This document shows, one piece after another, positions 4,088 through 28,053 of a stretch of DNA of 28,053 nucleotides. The DNA comes from a virus: IMG/VR virus record IMGVR_UViG_3300029286_001866, positions 1 to 28,053 of that record; one strand, given 5' to 3'. The first letter of the stretch is position 1; each line of letters opens with the position of its first letter. Both the position numbers and the translations under genes were made by a program. A model generated the notes under the pieces. The model saw only the letters and a program-made list of their open reading frames with translations, was not told the origin of the DNA and made no database searches.

Positions 4088-4295
4088 AAAAACCTCTAAC
4101 TTTATTAACATCTCTTAAAATCATCCATGCTTCTCTGGAAATTTCCACTTCTTCATTTAATGGATAAAAATAATTATTATCACCGACCCCAACAAATACT
4201 CCTTTATCACAATTACCTTGTATAAATGTAACTTTAAATGGATGACAACATTCCTCTAATTCTAAAACTTTCTTATTAGACCTCATTCTTTCCAT
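4056..4295 (-). CDS. Small hypothetical protein opening the glycosylation cassette
   Basis: This protein of about 79 residues, MERMRSNKKVLELEECCHPF..., has two cysteines at CC and one further along, and a motif of short beta strands (VFVGVGDNNYFYPLNEEVEISREAW). I do not recognise the family. The ATG at 4295 is preferred over 4349, because the longer form would translate through the terminator hairpin at 4338-4363. It has no Shine-Dalgarno, and a TTGACA/TAAATT promoter ends five bases before the ATG, so it is a candidate leaderless first gene of the cassette. Confidence 0.6.
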   Translation of the reverse strand: MERMRSNKKVLELEECCHPFKVTFIQGNCDKGVFVGVGDNNYFYPLNEEVEISREAWMILRDVNKVRGFYVQNTYDPFK

Positions 4296-4300
4296 AATTA

Positions 4301-4328
4301 AATTTACAACAATCAAAAATATTGTCAA
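4301..4328 (-). promoter_or_regulatory. Sigma70-type promoter of the glycosylation cassette
   Basis: On the minus strand TTGACA (4328-4323) is followed after 16 bases by TAAATT (4306-4301), with five bases to the ATG at 4295. Expected initiation falls at or within a base or two of the start codon, giving a leaderless message. It sits directly downstream of the capsid terminator, which makes the cassette an independent transcription unit. Confidence 0.6.
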
Positions 4329-4334
4329 GTCCAA

Positions 4335-4363
4335 TAAAAAAGCCCCCATTTCTGGGGGCTTTT
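4335..4363. terminator. Rho-independent terminator after the capsid gene
   Basis: AAAAGCCCCC and GGGGGCTTTT form a perfect 10-bp stem around the loop ATTTCT. On the minus strand the stem is followed by a run of T, so it ends transcripts coming from the capsid gene (stop at 4379). The plus strand also has a TTTT, so it may act in both directions. Confidence 0.9.
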
Positions 4364-4378
4364 ATCTAATTTAATCTA

Positions 4379-5332
4379 TTAGACATAGCTAGCATCTCTA
4401 GCAGATTCAATTCTCACCATAGCCAAATCTTCAAGGATAACAGCTTTCATAGCAGCTTTCCAAGTTAATTTATGCTTGTTTTTCCATTCATCACCATGAC
4501 CACCTGGTGCGGTATAGATAATGTCAAAGTCAGAGAACATAATTTTGGAGACACCGTAAGCACCTTCACCAAAAACTAAGGTTTGATCAACAGTAGCGAC
4601 ACTAGAAGCAGATCCAGCTAAGCTAACAGTTGGGGCATATTGAGACATCCAGAAATCAACACCACCAAGAGTACCGATTCGTCCAGCAAATAAGTCCTGT
4701 GCTCGGCTATGTTCAACCAAATCTCTGAAGGTAGAATCCATCAAAAGAGTCAATTGAGTAATAGGGGAGATAACAGCACAATATTTACCGAATTTAGCAA
4801 CTGGTTGAGCTCCATTAGTTTGGAGTTTAGCAGCAGCTCGGAAAATATCTTTCATAGTAATAACGTGAGTAGACAATAAATCTTGACGTGCAACTATATT
4901 AGTACCAGAATAAATTACTTGAGTACCAGTAATTAACACAGTTCGGATTCTTTTATCAATAGCTTCAGCAGCTTGAACTGACAAATTCTTTCTCATGTTT
5001 TTAGGAATATCAGACCATGAAGTATATTCACGAGCAGAGTTCCATTCAACACCATTACCAAAAAGGTAATCAGGAGTACAAGTAATTGGAGCAGTAGAGA
5101 TAGAATCAGGAGTCCAGGTTGGGGAATCTCCAGTTACATTGGCGGTATAGCCAGTGTCACTATCAAATTTTGTAAATTTAATCCAGCTAAAAGAATTACC
5201 TTCAGAACGAGGCATTTCATCTTCTTGACCAAATTTGTTAAAAACTAAGTTATATTCCATTATAGGAAGAGCTTCCTTCATATAGTGGGCTTTATTTAAC
5301 CCAGTTGTATTGCTTATATTAGCAGCAGCCAT
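4379..5332 (-). CDS. Major capsid protein (HK97 fold, N4-gp56-like)
   Basis: This 317-residue protein has the features of the N4-gp56/P22-coat group: an N-terminal helix followed by EMPRSEGNSFSWIKFTKF, the strand-rich P-domain with repeated T/S-P turns, a spine-helix region (DIFRAAAKLQTNGAQPVAKFGKYCAVISPITQLTLLMD), then VDFWMSQYAP and a C-terminal beta strand set ending in KAAMKAVILEDLAMVRIESAR. It forms the shell of the head. The gene follows the scaffold gene by 17 bases and is followed by a strong terminator, as expected for the most abundant late product. No Shine-Dalgarno was seen. Exact family should be confirmed by profile search. Confidence 0.85.
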   Translation of the reverse strand: MAAANISNTTGLNKAHYMKEALPIMEYNLVFNKFGQEDEMPRSEGNSFSWIKFTKFDSDTGYTANVTGDSPTWTPDSISTAPITCTPDYLFGNGVEWNSAREYTSWSDIPKNMRKNLSVQAAEAIDKRIRTVLITGTQVIYSGTNIVARQDLLSTHVITMKDIFRAAAKLQTNGAQPVAKFGKYCAVISPITQLTLLMDSTFRDLVEHSRAQDLFAGRIGTLGGVDFWMSQYAPTVSLAGSASSVATVDQTLVFGEGAYGVSKIMFSDFDIIYTAPGGHGDEWKNKHKLTWKAAMKAVILEDLAMVRIESARDASYV

Positions 5333-16554: not shown

Positions 16555-16957
16555 AATTAATTTTACCATAGTGAAAAGTGCCAAAATTTTTTGTGGACTA
16601 CATCAAAATTCAGGGACCGCCAGCCAAACACGACACCCAGTACCCCACCCCTCAAAGTTTTAATGTCGCAAAATGTAGATTGTGCGACACTAATTTGTGC
16701 AACATATAGGCTCAGAGTATATCATTTGTTGGTATCCCTGGAATAATATACCTTATAATATAGAAGAAGGCGGCAAAATATCCTAAATTTGACTACTTTT
16801 GATATAAAAAAGCGGTGGATTTTTTGTATATGTACGAAATCCCCATAGGTTAGGCACAATAATTACCGCATAATTTACGGTAAAAGTGTTCATTTAAGGC
16901 ATTTACATCAGATTTTATATAATTATTTCCCATCTTTACATTAAAAATACATTTAAT

Positions 16958-20284: not shown

Positions 20285-20309
20285 TTTCTCTCCTTTTTAA
20301 ATTTATAAA

Positions 20310-20546
20310 ATGGGACTTGTGCAAAATTCCCTATATATAATAAATATACTTGTTTGCACAAGTTATATTTATTACATATATTTGTTGCACAACTACCTTT
20401 TTTTCTTAAATAGATAATATACCTTACTTACCGCACAAACCTTAGAGTTGTGCAATTGCACAAGTCCCATTGCACAACTGCACAACTCCCCAAAAAGACT
20501 TGTGCAAAGGGGGGTAAAAAAACGAAAGTCATTGCACAAGTCTTTT
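20310..20546. repeat. Array of TTGCACAA(G/C)T repeats, candidate origin or operator cluster
   Basis: Ten copies of the decamer TTGCACAAGT/TTGCACAACT, or its complement ACTTGTGCAA/AGTTGTGCAA, occur at 20315, 20354, 20385, 20431 (degenerate), 20446, 20456, 20470, 20478, 20498 and 20532. Two abut as a dyad (20446-20465). Two pairs extend to 15-base inverted repeats (20310-20324 with 20456-20470; 20493-20507 with 20532-20546). The stretch between copies is AT-rich. Such an array beside a primase-helicase gene is typical of an iteron origin; an operator cluster for the 20024-20284 gene is the alternative. No gene is present in it. Confidence 0.75.
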
Positions 20547-20568
20547 GATATAGTTTGAACTAGAATCA

Positions 20569-22516: not shown

Positions 22517-22545
22517 TTGACAATGAATTTCAATACCATTAATAT
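22517..22545 (+). promoter_or_regulatory. Promoter of the HTH gene operon (leaderless)
   Basis: TTGACA (22517-22522), a 17-base spacer and TAATAT (22540-22545), then six bases to ATG 22552. Initiation is expected at the A of the ATG. No SD is present. Confidence 0.75.
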
Positions 22546-22551
22546 TGAGAT

Positions 22552-22752
22552 ATGATTATAGAAAAACAATGGCTAACACCTAATGAGGCAGCTAAATACC
22601 TCGGTGTTCACGTCCATACAATATACAATTATTTGAGATTAAAAGAGAATCCTCTCCAATGCTCAAGAATTAGTAAAAACAACATTAGAATTAATGTTGA
22701 AACATTAGAAGAGTGGATCAAAAGTTATAATTTAGAAGGAGAAACAAAATGA
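22552..22752 (+). CDS. HTH (excisionase/MerR-type) DNA-binding protein
   Basis: This 66-residue protein reads QWLTPNEAAKYLGVHVHTIYNYLRLKENPLQCSRI...NIRINVETLEEWIKSYN. This is the HTH_17/excisionase pattern: a helix, the AAKYLGVHVHTIYNYL recognition unit, then a wing and a final helix with EEWI. Such proteins regulate or direct recombination; no integrase is in the window, so regulator is more likely. It sits between back-to-back promoters, the expected place for a switch. Its last bases overlap the next gene (ATGA). Confidence 0.8.
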   Translation: MIIEKQWLTPNEAAKYLGVHVHTIYNYLRLKENPLQCSRISKNNIRINVETLEEWIKSYNLEGETK

Positions 22753-22913
22753 CAAACGAACAAAGAATAGCGTTAATACTATTACAAGTAGTGATAATTT
22801 TAACTGCATTTAGGTTAGGGTTTTATTTAGGAATTAGAGAAAACCAAATCAAAGCGGATGGGTATTACTATCAAAAAGATGGTATTATGGTAGGTAAGTT
22901 TTATTTAGCTTAA
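22749..22913 (+). CDS. Small membrane protein
   Basis: This 54-residue protein, MTNEQRIALILLQVVIILTAFRLGFYLGIRENQ..., has one hydrophobic segment at about residues 8-27 and a basic/polar tail (KADGYYYQKDGIMVGKFYLA). It has an AAGGAG ribosome site and overlaps the stop of the HTH gene. It precedes the terminator hairpin. No family recognised. Confidence 0.7.
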   Translation: MTNEQRIALILLQVVIILTAFRLGFYLGIRENQIKADGYYYQKDGIMVGKFYLA

Positions 22914-22961
22914 AAAACTGATAAGGTGCCGCGACCTTGGCGGCATCTTAATGAGTTTTTT
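22912..22961 (+). terminator. Hairpin terminator after the HTH operon
   Basis: AAGGTGCCGC and GCGGCATCTT (22923-22932, 22940-22949) make a 10-bp stem around a seven-base loop, with one G-U pair. An outer AAAAAACT (22912-22919) pairs with AGTTTTTT (22954-22961) and supplies the T-run. It should terminate the two-gene operon. A read-through form would lead directly into the structured region. Confidence 0.85.
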
Positions 22962-22964
22962 AAA

Positions 22965-23069
22965 AACTTGAAAGTGGAATAGTAGGGCTGGAGAGTACAG
23001 ACCAGTTAACTCCATAAGCGATGGTGAATCCTTGCTTTTAGAGAGACGTCTCTAATCCACTTTTAAGTT
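22965..23069 (+). ncRNA. Candidate structured RNA / 5' leader (four-way junction)
   Basis: AACTTGAAAGTGGA (22965-22978) pairs with TCCACTTTTAAGTT (23056-23069): 13 Watson-Crick pairs plus one G-U. Inside it three hairpins fit in turn: TGGAG/CTCCA (22989-23014); AAGCGA-GG/CC-TTGCTT (23016-23037, one bulge); and TTAGAG/CTCTAA (23038-23055). The second and third abut, and the third runs straight into the closing stem. The result resembles a compact four-way junction. It lies in the leader of the SSB-like gene. It matches no riboswitch I recognise. Confidence 0.55.
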
Positions 23070-23083
23070 CTTAATGAACTTAA
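23063..23083 (+). promoter_or_regulatory. Alternative hairpin competing with the RNA closing stem
   Basis: TTAAGTTC and GAACTTAA (8-bp stem, five-base loop). Its 5' arm overlaps the 3' strand of the closing stem (23056-23069), so the two pairings exclude each other. No T-run follows, so any control would act by translation or RNA stability. It could alternatively be a protein operator. Confidence 0.5.
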
Positions 23084-23094
23084 TATTATTTATT

Positions 23095-23115
23095 ATGCTA
23101 GAAAGTATATGCTAG
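23095..23115 (+). other. Mini-ORF (MLESIC) overlapping the next start
   Basis: ATGCTAGAAAGTATATGCTAG encodes six codons and a stop. It overlaps the ATG of the SSB-like gene (23109) in another frame. TATGCTAGAAA is duplicated (23094-23104, 23108-23118), so the start context is repeated. TATTAT ends five bases before the first ATG. It may be a decoy or leader, or just a local duplication. Confidence 0.35.
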
Positions 23116-23654
23116 AAAAACCTGTAAAAATGGGAGTCGGTGGAAATTTTTCCACTATCCCAGAAGATAAATACACGACTCAAATCGTGGATGTAAACCT
23201 GGTAACCCAGAAGAAGTACATGTCATCGGAAGATGAAGATGTCCTTAATTATAAATTTGTGATTCTCGACAAAAAAGAGATTGATGGTGACGAAAAAGGC
23301 ACCAGAGGTCGCTTCCTTTGGAAAAGAGTTCCTCTATTCATAGGTGGAGATAAATCATGGGCTAATAAGCTATATAAAGCTGTCATTGGTCGAGAACTTA
23401 CCAAAGAAGAAAAGGAAGCCTTTGATCCTGAAAGTGTTGTTGGAAAGCAAGTTGATGTTTTTATTGAGAATAAACCAAGTAAAGATAAAAGTACTTTATA
23501 TACTAATATCACTAACTTTGTAAAGACTACCAAACAATTAGATCCAGTTGAAGATGCTCAACCTAATAATGTAGTTGTTGAAAAAACTTCTAAAGCTGTG
23601 CAAATGCCAGCTGATGAAGATCCTGAAAAAGTAATTGCTGATTTAAAAGCATAA
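23109..23654 (+). CDS. SSB-like phage protein (OB-fold, DUF669-type, putative)
   Basis: This 181-residue protein has a beta-rich body: NFSTIPEDKYTTQIVDVNLVTQKKY, VLNYKFVILDKKE, GRFLWKRVPLF, VVGKQVDVFIENKPSKDKSTLYTNITNFV. The strands, an acidic disordered tail (residues 145-181) and the position directly upstream of nuclease and helicase fit a single-strand DNA-binding protein. The acidic C-terminus is typical of SSBs. Family-level evidence is by pattern only. The start lacks an SD; AGAAAG lies a few bases upstream of the ATG. Confidence 0.6.
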   Translation: MLEKPVKMGVGGNFSTIPEDKYTTQIVDVNLVTQKKYMSSEDEDVLNYKFVILDKKEIDGDEKGTRGRFLWKRVPLFIGGDKSWANKLYKAVIGRELTKEEKEAFDPESVVGKQVDVFIENKPSKDKSTLYTNITNFVKTTKQLDPVEDAQPNNVVVEKTSKAVQMPADEDPEKVIADLKA

Positions 23655-23695
23655 TTTCTTGCTACACTCCCTCAGTTGTACCTGAGAGGGTGGGT

Positions 23696-23700
23696 GGAGG
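23696..23700 (+). promoter_or_regulatory. Shine-Dalgarno GGAGG of the nuclease gene
   Basis: GGAGG lies ten bases before ATG 23711. A GTG at 23690 in the same frame is rejected because the SD lies after it. An imperfect hairpin (CCTCAG/CTGAGAGG, 23670-23688) immediately precedes the site. Confidence 0.75.
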
Positions 23701-23710
23701 AAATAAAAAT

Positions 23711-24460
23711 ATGAGAATTATAAACGAAATGTATAATGGTGAAATAGAAATGGTTTTTGATGATTTAGTTCATCGTTACAGTATTAATGGTAAAAAAATT
23801 AAATCTGTTACTGGAATTCTTGGTGTGATTTCTAAACCATATCTGATTCCTTGGGCAGCTAAAGTTACTGTTGAGAAGATGTCAGAGTTATTTAAACCTG
23901 GAACTCCTTATGATGAAATAGAAATTAAACAGATGTTAGACACCTCTAAGAGGGCTCATTTTGCTATTAAAACAACTGCTGCCGACATCGGCACTTTAGT
24001 ACATAAATATCTTGAACAATATATTAAAGGTGAAAAACCAGAAGAACTAGTCCACGAACAAGCTAGAAAAGCTACAGAGAGATTTATTAACTGGGTTGAA
24101 AAGAATAAAGTTAAATTTCTTTTATCTGAACAAATGGTTTACAGTAGAAAGTATGATTATTGTGGAACATTAGACTTTGTTTGTGTTATCAATGGTAAAT
24201 TAATGTTAGGAGATATTAAGACTTCCAACCAAATTAGTAAGATTGAATATGGGGCTCAGATGGCTGCTTATAAGATGGCTAGAAATGAAGAATTTCCAGA
24301 AGAAAAATACCAGGGAATGGTTTTAATTAGAGTTGGAAAGAAAGATGCAGAATTTGAACACTGGGAAATCGGCGAAGAAGAAACTAAAATTTATGAAGAT
24401 ATTTTTTTAAACTCAATAAGTCTTAAAAGTTCTATTGATAAAGTGGAGGTTGAAAAATGA
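23711..24460 (+). CDS. PD-(D/E)XK nuclease (Cas4/RecB-like exonuclease)
   Basis: The 249-residue protein carries the core nuclease pattern: GTLVHKYLEQY (about 94-104), EQMVYSRKYDYCGTLDFV with E140 and D155, and LMLGDIKTSNQI with D168-x-K170, then a QMAAY-type motif (183-187). This is the motif set of RecB-family exonucleases used in phage recombination and end processing. No cysteine cluster is visible, so it is not an Fe-S Cas4. Next to SSB-like and helicase genes it is likely part of a recombination or replication module. Confidence 0.85.
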   Translation: MRIINEMYNGEIEMVFDDLVHRYSINGKKIKSVTGILGVISKPYLIPWAAKVTVEKMSELFKPGTPYDEIEIKQMLDTSKRAHFAIKTTAADIGTLVHKYLEQYIKGEKPEELVHEQARKATERFINWVEKNKVKFLLSEQMVYSRKYDYCGTLDFVCVINGKLMLGDIKTSNQISKIEYGAQMAAYKMARNEEFPEEKYQGMVLIRVGKKDAEFEHWEIGEEETKIYEDIFLNSISLKSSIDKVEVEK

Positions 24461-25810: not shown

Positions 25811-26067
25811 AAATATATAAATACAGTCGTAAAAAAATAATTAGACAGATGAAAGAATCACAGTATGGTTATATTAAATGTGGAAAACTAATAATAGATG
25901 ACCTATTAGCCACAATAAATAAACCATCTAAAAAGATTAAAGAATTTGAAACACTTTTCCATTATTCAAATAATTTTAGAGAAGTAAGTTTTAAACAAAG
26001 TGATGAATTTAGACAATGGGTTAAACAAATAACATACACAATTAATTTATTAATTAAAAACAAATAA
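25807..26067 (+). CDS. Hypothetical protein
   Basis: This 86-residue protein, MKIYKYSRKKIIRQMKESQYGYIKCGKLIIDDLLATINKPSKKIKEFETLFHYSNNF..., is basic and helical. ATGA overlap with the helicase, GGAG ahead of the start, and a one-base overlap with the following gene. No family recognised. Confidence 0.7.
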   Translation: MKIYKYSRKKIIRQMKESQYGYIKCGKLIIDDLLATINKPSKKIKEFETLFHYSNNFREVSFKQSDEFRQWVKQITYTINLLIKNK

Positions 26068-26918
26068 TGAAAACACTAAAATTAGGTGCAAAAGACTTTA
26101 AAGAGTCAGATAGTTATTATAAAATTTACATCGGAAAAACTGATGTATCAGACTTTGATGGTCATATAGAAATTGAAGGTGGTTTAGGATACGTAAAATT
26201 TAATTCTATTAAAGTTACTGGTCATATATTGGCGGAAGCAGGTTCGGGAATTGAAGCAGGTTGGGGAATTGAAGCAGGTTCTGGAATTAAAGCAGGTTGG
26301 GGAATTGAAGCAGGTTCGGGAATTGAAGCAGGTGAGGGAATTGAAGCAGGTTCTGGAATTAAAGCAGGTGAGGGAATTGAAGCAGGTTGGGGAATTAAAG
26401 CAGGTTGGGGAATTAAAGCAGGTTCTGGAATTAAAGCAGGTGAGGGAATTGAAGCAGGTTCTGGAATTGAAGCAGGTTCTGGAATTAAAGCAGGTTGGGG
26501 AATTAAAGCAGGTTGGGGAATTAAAGCAGGTTGGGGAATTAAAGCAGGTGAGGGAATTGAAGCAGGTGAGGGAATTGAAGCAGGTTCTGGAATTGAAGCA
26601 GGTTCTGGAATTAAAGCAGGTTTATCTATAAGTTGTAAATTAAAACTCAATATCGGTTTAAGAATATTTGCTGGGCTATGTTTATGGAGAAAACCAGAAA
26701 TAGAAGAAACAAAAATAATTTGTGGAAAATTAGAAAAAGGTGATGTTTCATTTGGAGTTTTAGAAGAAACTGGATTGCCAGAAGAAAAGAAAGAAATTAG
26801 TCTATCGGGTAAAGAAGTTTCTGTAACTATTGATAATGTTACTTATCAGCAATCATTAAATAAACCCCCTATGATAAATAAAACTTTACTCAATTCAAAA
26901 CAAGGAGAAGATAAATGA
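26067..26918 (+). CDS. Hexapeptide-repeat (beta-solenoid) protein
   Basis: The 283-residue protein has an N-terminal region (1-57), 21 perfect-length copies of AG-x-G-I-(E/K) (about residues 58-183), and a C-terminal part with LEKGDVSFGVLEETGLPEEKKEISLSGKEVSVTIDNVTY. The repeat has the I-(E/K)-A-G-x-G spacing of left-handed beta-helix hexapeptides. Only two positions vary: x is S, W or E, and the last is E or K. No enzymatic motif was seen. It is embedded in the replication operon, so a binding or scaffold role is possible. Confidence 0.75.
   Translation: MKTLKLGAKDFKESDSYYKIYIGKTDVSDFDGHIEIEGGLGYVKFNSIKVTGHILAEAGSGIEAGWGIEAGSGIKAGWGIEAGSGIEAGEGIEAGSGIKAGEGIEAGWGIKAGWGIKAGSGIKAGEGIEAGSGIEAGSGIKAGWGIKAGWGIKAGWGIKAGEGIEAGEGIEAGSGIEAGSGIKAGLSISCKLKLNIGLRIFAGLCLWRKPEIEETKIICGKLEKGDVSFGVLEETGLPEEKKEISLSGKEVSVTIDNVTYQQSLNKPPMINKTLLNSKQGEDK
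26238..26615 (+). repeat. 21 tandem 18-bp repeats
   Basis: The unit is GCAGGT-xxx-GGAATT-(G/A)AA. The third codon is TCT/TCG (Ser), TGG (Trp) or GAG (Glu). Because the unit is a multiple of three, all frames stay open across it, which creates spurious long reading frames on both strands. Confidence 0.95.
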
Positions 26919-27586: not shown

Positions 27587-28053
27587 AAAAAACTAAACAA
27601 ATAATGACAAATAAAAAATATTCGCTTACAAAAACAACCAAAAAATGGTGTGGTGTTACTTTATTTCAAATCAAAGCTGAAAAAGACTTTGGAAATATCA
27701 GTAAAGGTGAACTTGGTGGTTATATAGAGAAAGAAGAAAATCTAGATAACTCTGGTAATGCTTGGGTCTCTGGTGATGCTCAGGTCTATGGTGATGCTCG
27801 GGTCTCTGGTGATGCTCAGGTCTCTGGTAATGCTTGGGTCTCTGGTGGTGCTCAGATCTATGGTGATGCTCAGGTCTCTGGTAATGCTTGGGTCTCTGGT
27901 GGTGCTCGGGTCTCTGGTAATGCTTGGGTCTCTGGTGATGCTCAGGTCTCTGGTAATGCTTGGGTCTCTGGTGATGCTCAGGTCTATGGTGATGCTCGGG
28001 TCTCTGGTGATGCTCAGGTCTCTGGTAATGTTTGGGTCTCTGGTAATGCTTGG
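27583..28053 (+). CDS. Partial hexapeptide-repeat protein (polymer-forming type)
   Basis: At least 157 residues, truncated at the right edge. The N-terminus (1-57) includes CGVTLFQIKAEKDFGNISKGELGGYIEKEENLDNSGNAWVSG, a leader often seen before this kind of repeat (GGYIEKEENL). Next come units of G-(D/N/G)-A-x-V-(S/Y). Position 4 is W, Q or R. These proteins occur in phages and bacteria and are thought to form beta-solenoids; function is unknown. The start overlaps the methyltransferase (ATGA). Confidence 0.8.
   Translation, partial: MKKTKQIMTNKKYSLTKTTKKWCGVTLFQIKAEKDFGNISKGELGGYIEKEENLDNSGNAWVSGDAQVYGDARVSGDAQVSGNAWVSGGAQIYGDAQVSGNAWVSGGARVSGNAWVSGDAQVSGNAWVSGDAQVYGDARVSGDAQVSGNVWVSGNAW
27754..28053 (+). 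repeat. At least 16 tandem 18-bp repeats
   Basis: The units are GGT-(A/G)(A/G)T-GCT-xxx-GTC-T(C/A)T with x = TGG, CAG or CGG, running to the window end (16 units and 12 bases). Two larger blocks recur (e.g. DAQVYGDARVSGDAQVSG at the start and near the end), which suggests recent internal duplication. Confidence 0.9.

What the first reader, a model, noticed from the sequence alone, without database searches (positions are those of the whole stretch)
22965..23069. Candidate structured RNA with four-way junction in front of the SSB-like gene
A 14-bp closing stem with one G-U pair encloses three hairpins that tile nearly the whole interval, two abutting each other and one abutting the closing stem. 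The chance of this tidy packing is low in AT-rich sequence. It sits just downstream of a terminator and upstream of the recombination operon, so it is either a free small RNA or a leader element. I do not recognise a known riboswitch or ribozyme.
Basis: seen in the sequence. Interest (0 to 1): 0.75.

Follow-up and report, generated by a model that had tools for sequence, protein, structure and literature searches.

The report
Folded RNA ahead of phage SSB gene
Just in front of a phage gene for a single-stranded-DNA-binding protein lies a 105-base sequence that folds into a four-way-junction RNA with no relative in the collections searched; it is probably a control element in that gene's messenger RNA, possibly one that the protein itself binds to limit its own production, but its function is untested.

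Summary
At 22965-23069 (+ strand) the sequence folds at -36.8 kcal/mol (z -4.5, 0 of 200 shuffles), with a 14-bp closing stem (one G-U), one bistable hairpin and two firm, abutting hairpins. Several G-U pairs work only on the + strand, so it looks like RNA. No Rfam family matches, DNA searches find no relative, and a covariance model finds only the window among 16 related records, so the requested covariation test cannot be run.

New evidence comes from eight syntenic phage records (IMG/VR) in which SSB follows an excisionase-like operon. In five, SSB starts at or within 7 nt of the upstream gene, with a strong Shine-Dalgarno. The window and two others have 177-195 nt there, holding three different structured RNAs: the four-way junction, a degenerate tRNA-Leu-like RNA and a long closed stem. 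The window's SSB has no Shine-Dalgarno but a 39-nt A/U-rich leader.

Best explanation: a cis-acting leader of the SSB mRNA, possibly a phage-T4-gp32-like operator for autogenous control (inferred, not shown). The main rival is an excised RNA cassette or tRNA-like relic. Real structure is likely (about 0.8); mechanism is open.

The parts
22965..23069 (+). four-way-junction RNA element (whole)
   Evidence: z -4.5; no Rfam hit; GC 41% against 33% for the window
22965..22978 (+). P1 closing stem, 5' strand (pairs with 23056-23069; G22970-U23064 wobble)
   Evidence: pair probabilities mostly ~1
23056..23069 (+). P1 closing stem, 3' strand
22986..23014 (+). P2 region, bistable: 22986-22991/23002-23007 or 22989-22993/23010-23014
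   Evidence: -36.8 against -36.4 kcal/mol
23016..23037 (+). P3 hairpin (G-U at 23020/23033)
   Evidence: pair probability 0.73-0.98
23038..23055 (+). P4 hairpin, GACG loop
   Evidence: pair probability 0.68-0.94
22906..22963 (+). terminator-like hairpin (core 22922-22950, T-run 22958-22963) closing the upstream excisionase-like operon
   Evidence: terminator scan; sequence
23070..23108 (+). 39-nt A/U-rich leader to the SSB start, two UUAAU repeats, no Shine-Dalgarno; contains the right half of palindrome TTAAGTTC-N5-GAACTTAA (23063-23083)
23109..23654 (+). SSB-like OB-fold protein (181 aa)
   Evidence: phrog_378 E 2.5e-4; AF2 model and Foldseek hits to PrgE and DUF669/SSB-like proteins
22552..22752 (+). 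excisionase-like HTH_17 gene, start of the operon in which SSB lies in relatives; promoter-like TTGACA-17-TAATAT at 22517-22545
23690..24460 (+). RecB/Cas4-type exonuclease, next gene of the recombination operon
   Evidence: phrog_298 8e-39, PF12705

Best explanation
The element is a + strand RNA structure that forms the 5' leader (intercistronic leader) of the SSB-exonuclease mRNA. Shown: the predicted fold, its position, the missing Shine-Dalgarno and the 39-nt A/U-rich stretch between fold and start codon. Inferred: the fold is a cis-acting control site for SSB translation, most likely an operator to which SSB itself binds. The folded element would nucleate binding and SSB would then spread along the A/U-rich leader over the start codon, shutting off its own synthesis once free ssDNA is covered, as T4 gp32 does. 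Relatives without the element have SSB next to the upstream gene with a strong Shine-Dalgarno, so the element goes with uncoupled, separately controlled SSB translation.
For: Fold z -4.5 and + strand preference through G-U pairs. Position 39 nt before SSB, with P1 predicted stable in full context. Eight syntenic relatives: the gap before SSB is -3 to 7 nt with SDs such as AAAGGAGGTGAA in five, 77 nt in one, and 177-195 nt with a structured RNA only in the window, L094 and L096. The window SSB lacks an SD. The T4 gp32 operator is a ~28-nt folded 5' part plus a >40-nt less structured part with UUAAA/UAAA repeats over the ribosome-binding site (PMC535899); the window has the same order of parts with UUAAU repeats.
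Against: No homologue of the element, hence no covariation evidence. The T4 operator fold is a small pseudoknot, not a four-way junction. The SSB here is not shown to be related to gp32, and its RNA binding is unknown. In the two other phages with a long gap the structured RNA is different, and L096 keeps a reasonable SD. No transcript data exist.
Confidence: 0.33

Rival explanations
1. The element is an intercistronic RNA cassette, possibly a degenerate tRNA/tmRNA-like gene, at a slot where this phage group carries exchangeable structured RNAs. It is cut out of the early transcript by host RNases, thereby setting the 5' end of the SSB mRNA and releasing a stable small RNA, like tRNA punctuation.
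For: L094 has a tRNA-Leu-like RNA in the same slot (acceptor GTGCGGG/CCCGCAC, D-arm GCGGAATAGGTAGACGC). L100 has a tmRNA tRNA-like domain without its mRNA part one gene downstream (E 2.8e-11). The L014 record has another tRNA-like RNA between direct repeats. AGTATTTAATT occurs on the + strand of the 1.42 Mb held only directly 3' of the L094 and L096 elements. A hand-anchored P1 foot over window/L094/L096 keeps 91% of cells paired with 3 double changes. Global similarity of the window element to the L100 tRNA-like domain reaches z 3-4.
Against: The window element has no T-loop or anticodon arm and no tRNA/tmRNA CM hit. Similarity to the L094 element is not significant, arm similarity is reached by 16/300 and 178/300 shuffles, and the L100 similarity is one of several comparisons and is nearly equalled elsewhere in the window.
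Confidence: 0.27
2. A free trans-acting small RNA with its own promoter (regulator of host or phage mRNAs, or decoy of a host factor).
For: Compact, well folded, bounded by a terminator-like hairpin upstream; GC 41% against 33%.
Against: No promoter-like site of 9/12 or better between terminator and element; no terminator directly 3' of it; the gene 39 nt downstream is on the same strand.
Confidence: 0.12
3. A DNA-level element (cruciform, replication origin part, or operator): the inverted repeats act in DNA.
For: Perfect palindrome TTAAGTTC-N5-GAACTTAA at 23063-23083 overlaps a weak promoter-like TTCTTA-17-TATTAT; P1 arms share AACTT with it.
Against: G-U pairs favour the + strand RNA (-36.8 against -28.3). 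A stronger origin candidate with repeated TTGTGCAA lies at 20285-20568. The palindrome has no second copy in the window within 3 mismatches.
Confidence: 0.1
4. Chance or neutral structure: lineage-specific spacer that happens to fold well.
For: No homologues; strong folds are common in gaps of this AT-rich window; five of eight relatives do without it.
Against: z -4.5; a 14-bp closing stem in this gap is expected about 0.004 times per strand; L096 also keeps a strongly folded RNA there.
Confidence: 0.18

Closest known systems
Phage T4 / RB69 gene 32 translational operator (SSB autogenous control; PMC535899)
   Same: Folded RNA directly 5' of a less structured, A/U-rich leader with UUAA-type repeats before an SSB gene's start codon.
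   Different: There a ~28-nt pseudoknot, here a 105-nt four-way junction; relation of the two SSB proteins not shown; no binding data; no Shine-Dalgarno here.
STAXI RNA motif (Weinberg et al. 2010, PMC2864571)
   Same: Structured element often near SSB, integrase and other DNA-handling genes.
   Different: STAXI is a repeated pseudoknot; no Rfam hit here.
tRNA / tmRNA tRNA-like RNAs carried by related phages (L094, L014, L100)
   Same: Same gene neighbourhood, closed multi-branched RNA; in L094 and L014 the closing stem is extended by AU-rich flanks.
   Different: Window element lacks T-loop, anticodon arm and any tRNA/tmRNA model score.
Phage T4 stable RNAs C and D (from own knowledge)
   Same: Phage-encoded small structured RNAs of unknown function.
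   Different: Those lie in a tRNA cluster; no sequence comparison made.

Membership tests
Any Rfam family | match at or above gathering score | tested here: not met
   none at gathering; all hits at E<=10 far below cut-offs
T4 gp32-type SSB operator | folded nucleation element 5' of the SSB start | tested here: met
   (predicted fold, 39 nt before SSB); that it nucleates binding is untested
T4 gp32-type SSB operator | pseudoknot as the folded part | tested here: not met
   four-way junction predicted; the folding tool does not model pseudoknots
T4 gp32-type SSB operator | unstructured A/U-rich leader with UUAAA/UAAA-type repeats over the RBS | tested here: inconclusive
   39 nt, two UUAAU, open at 23084-23093, but a small hairpin at 23094-23109 and no SD
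T4 gp32-type SSB operator | specific binding and repression by the SSB | not testable with these tools
   needs binding and reporter assays
tRNA / tmRNA | covariance-model or ARAGORN match | tested here: not met
tRNA / tmRNA | T-arm with TTC[AG]A loop abutting the acceptor stem | tested here: not met
   P4 loop is GACG; no T-arm pattern in the gap
self-cleaving ribozymes | Rfam match or hammerhead core | tested here: not met
STAXI | Rfam match, tandem pseudoknots | tested here: not met
intrinsic terminator / attenuator | GC stem followed by a U-run | tested here: not met
   only the upstream hairpin 22922-22950 qualifies, not the element

The most novel reading that the evidence does not exclude
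This phage lineage carries exchangeable, tRNA/tmRNA-derived RNA cassettes next to its SSB gene, and the four-way junction is one that has drifted beyond recognition. Such folded cassettes would replace Shine-Dalgarno-driven coupling and control SSB synthesis: a tRNA-like translational operator in a bacterial virus.
Probability: 0.12. Interest if true: 0.75.

Novelty: new variant of a known kind. Interest (0 to 1): 0.4.

Why it matters
SSB level affects the balance of replication and recombination in a phage. An RNA fold that gates SSB translation outside the T4 group would suggest that autogenous SSB control arose more than once. The slot comparison also points to a phage group that holds unrelated structured RNAs, some tRNA- or tmRNA-like, near one gene, which is directly testable.

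Tried and rejected
DNA searches of the element in phages, plasmids and viral contigs: no relative. Single-protein searches with SSB and helicase in IMG/VR: nothing; the exonuclease alone gave one distant locus without an SSB match. The exonuclease alignment opened the way, then SSB alignments. The SSB alignment in genome contigs found no relative. Alignment A3 held a dummy second row with one altered base; it was not used, and the model R1 was built from two identical rows (A4) instead, so R1 knows only this sequence. The MAFFT alignment of the three slots (A9) misaligns the elements and was not used for pair counts. Ribozyme-like patterns: nothing convincing. Integrases: none in the window or the SSB-bearing relatives searched, so an attachment-site explanation for the tRNA-like pieces is not supported in these records, some of which are fragments. 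tRNA-Leu homology of the window element to L094 looked tempting (AATCCTTGC shared) but is not significant.

Full report
The window is a 28,053-base virus record, 32.6% GC. The element lies between a small gene that follows an excisionase-like HTH gene (22552-22752) and an SSB-like gene (23109-23654). Downstream come a RecB/Cas4-type exonuclease, a helicase and a DNA methyltransferase.

Observation. The + strand of 22965-23069 folds into a 14-bp closing stem with one G-U pair, enclosing three hairpins; energy -36.8 kcal/mol, z -4.5, no shuffle as good. The minus strand folds less well (-28.3) because the G-U pairs become A-C mismatches. P1, P3 and P4 are firm; P2 is bistable within 0.4 kcal/mol. 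A closing stem of that kind is the only one in the window and is expected 0.54 times per strand over the whole window in shuffles, which scales to about 0.004 per strand for the 195-nt gap. The element is richer in GC (41%, interior 44%) than the window. No ORF of 60 aa overlaps it.

Known families. No Rfam match at gathering score in the window, nothing credible at E<=10 in the region, no tRNA or tmRNA, no hammerhead core.

Relatives. DNA and single-protein searches found almost nothing, so the lineage is sparsely sampled. Alignment-based searches brought in syntenic phages with the SSB and exonuclease genes: L014, L094, L096, L097, L100, L101, L104, L189. The five SSB proteins aligned with the window's are 39-47% identical to it. 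A covariance model made from the window element alone finds only itself in all of them and in other records. A model built from one sequence has limited reach, so distant homologues could be missed.

The slot. In L014, L097, L100, L101 and L189 the SSB start lies -3 to 7 nt from the upstream gene and has a strong SD; in L104 the gap is 77 nt. In the window, L094 and L096 the gap is 177-195 nt and holds structured RNA. L094 has a tRNA-Leu-like RNA with a proper D-arm but a T-loop UGCAAAU and no normal anticodon arm; ARAGORN and Rfam do not call it. L096 has a long closed stem (-48.4 kcal/mol, z -8.5) and a second element. The 11-mer AGTATTTAATT occurs on the + strand of 1.42 Mb of loci only directly 3' of the L094 and L096 elements; the window has the looser AGTTCTTAAT at the same place. 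A hand-anchored alignment of the foot of P1 over the three phages keeps 91% of cells paired and has three pairs changed on both sides (slid controls: none; 76 of 500 shuffles as good), but arm similarity by itself is weak. I treat slot homology as suggestive only.

tRNA origin? L100 carries a tmRNA tRNA-like domain with the mRNA part missing, one gene downstream of SSB, and the L014 record has another tRNA-like RNA flanked by direct repeats. The window element aligns with the L100 piece better than shuffles (z 3-4), but similar scores occur elsewhere in the window and several comparisons were made; it lacks a T-loop. So this is a lead, not a result.

Protein. An AF2 model of the SSB (pLDDT 69, so moderate confidence) has an OB-like strand order; best structural matches are PrgE from pCF10 and DUF669/SSB-like phage proteins, which supports the SSB label.

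Mechanism. Shown: fold (predicted), position, no SD, 39-nt A/U-rich leader. Inferred: cis-acting control of SSB translation. The order of parts matches the T4 gp32 operator (PMC535899), where a folded element nucleates binding and the protein spreads over an A/U-rich leader. The missing SD and the loss of close spacing in the phages with a long gap make a separate control of SSB translation plausible. Nothing here shows binding or transcription.

Verdict: a real-looking, lineage-specific structured RNA; no member of a described family; probable leader; mechanism a testable analogy.

Noticed in passing
window 20285-20568 (- strand): Intergenic region dense in TTGTGCAA/TTGCACAA repeats and long hairpins between the primase and the next gene (MFE -92.9, z -7.9); looks like an iteron-type origin or regulator binding region. 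Related TTGTGCGACA/TTGTGCAACA at about 16680-16705.
   Followed up: partly
window 26146-26712 and 27696-28053: Two arrays of 18-bp tandem repeats; the first is inside ORF 26067-26918, the second runs to the record end. L014 5636-6481 encodes a protein with short DQV-type repeats.
   Followed up: no
window 23655-23712; L094, L096, L097, L101, L104, L189 after SSB: After the SSB stop codon most relatives keep a hairpin of changing sequence followed by the next gene's SD, which in several is partly paired with a U-rich/TTGC stretch before the hairpin: a conserved intercistronic hairpin with apparent compensatory changes.
   Followed up: partly
L100 4572-4644: Rfam tmRNA hit (E 2.8e-11, below gathering score) in which the whole mRNA part is missing: a stand-alone tRNA-like domain in a phage, next to a second closed RNA structure (4438-4570).
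   Followed up: partly
L014 8336-8460: tRNA-like RNA between two direct repeats CTTTTAAAGAGAAG.
   Followed up: no
L014 3877-3990; L094 7620-7950: Further closed-stem structured RNAs in gaps of related phages; L094 has about 330 nt of successive hairpin-like sequence beginning with a 14-bp closed 86-nt element.
   Followed up: no
window 23095-23120: 13-nt tandem duplication TATGCTAGAAA at the SSB start; the first ATG copy is out of frame.
   Followed up: no
window 4255-4350 (- strand): 20-bp AT-rich closed stem next to a terminator-like hairpin, at the start of the 4056-4349 gene (z -5.2).
   Followed up: no
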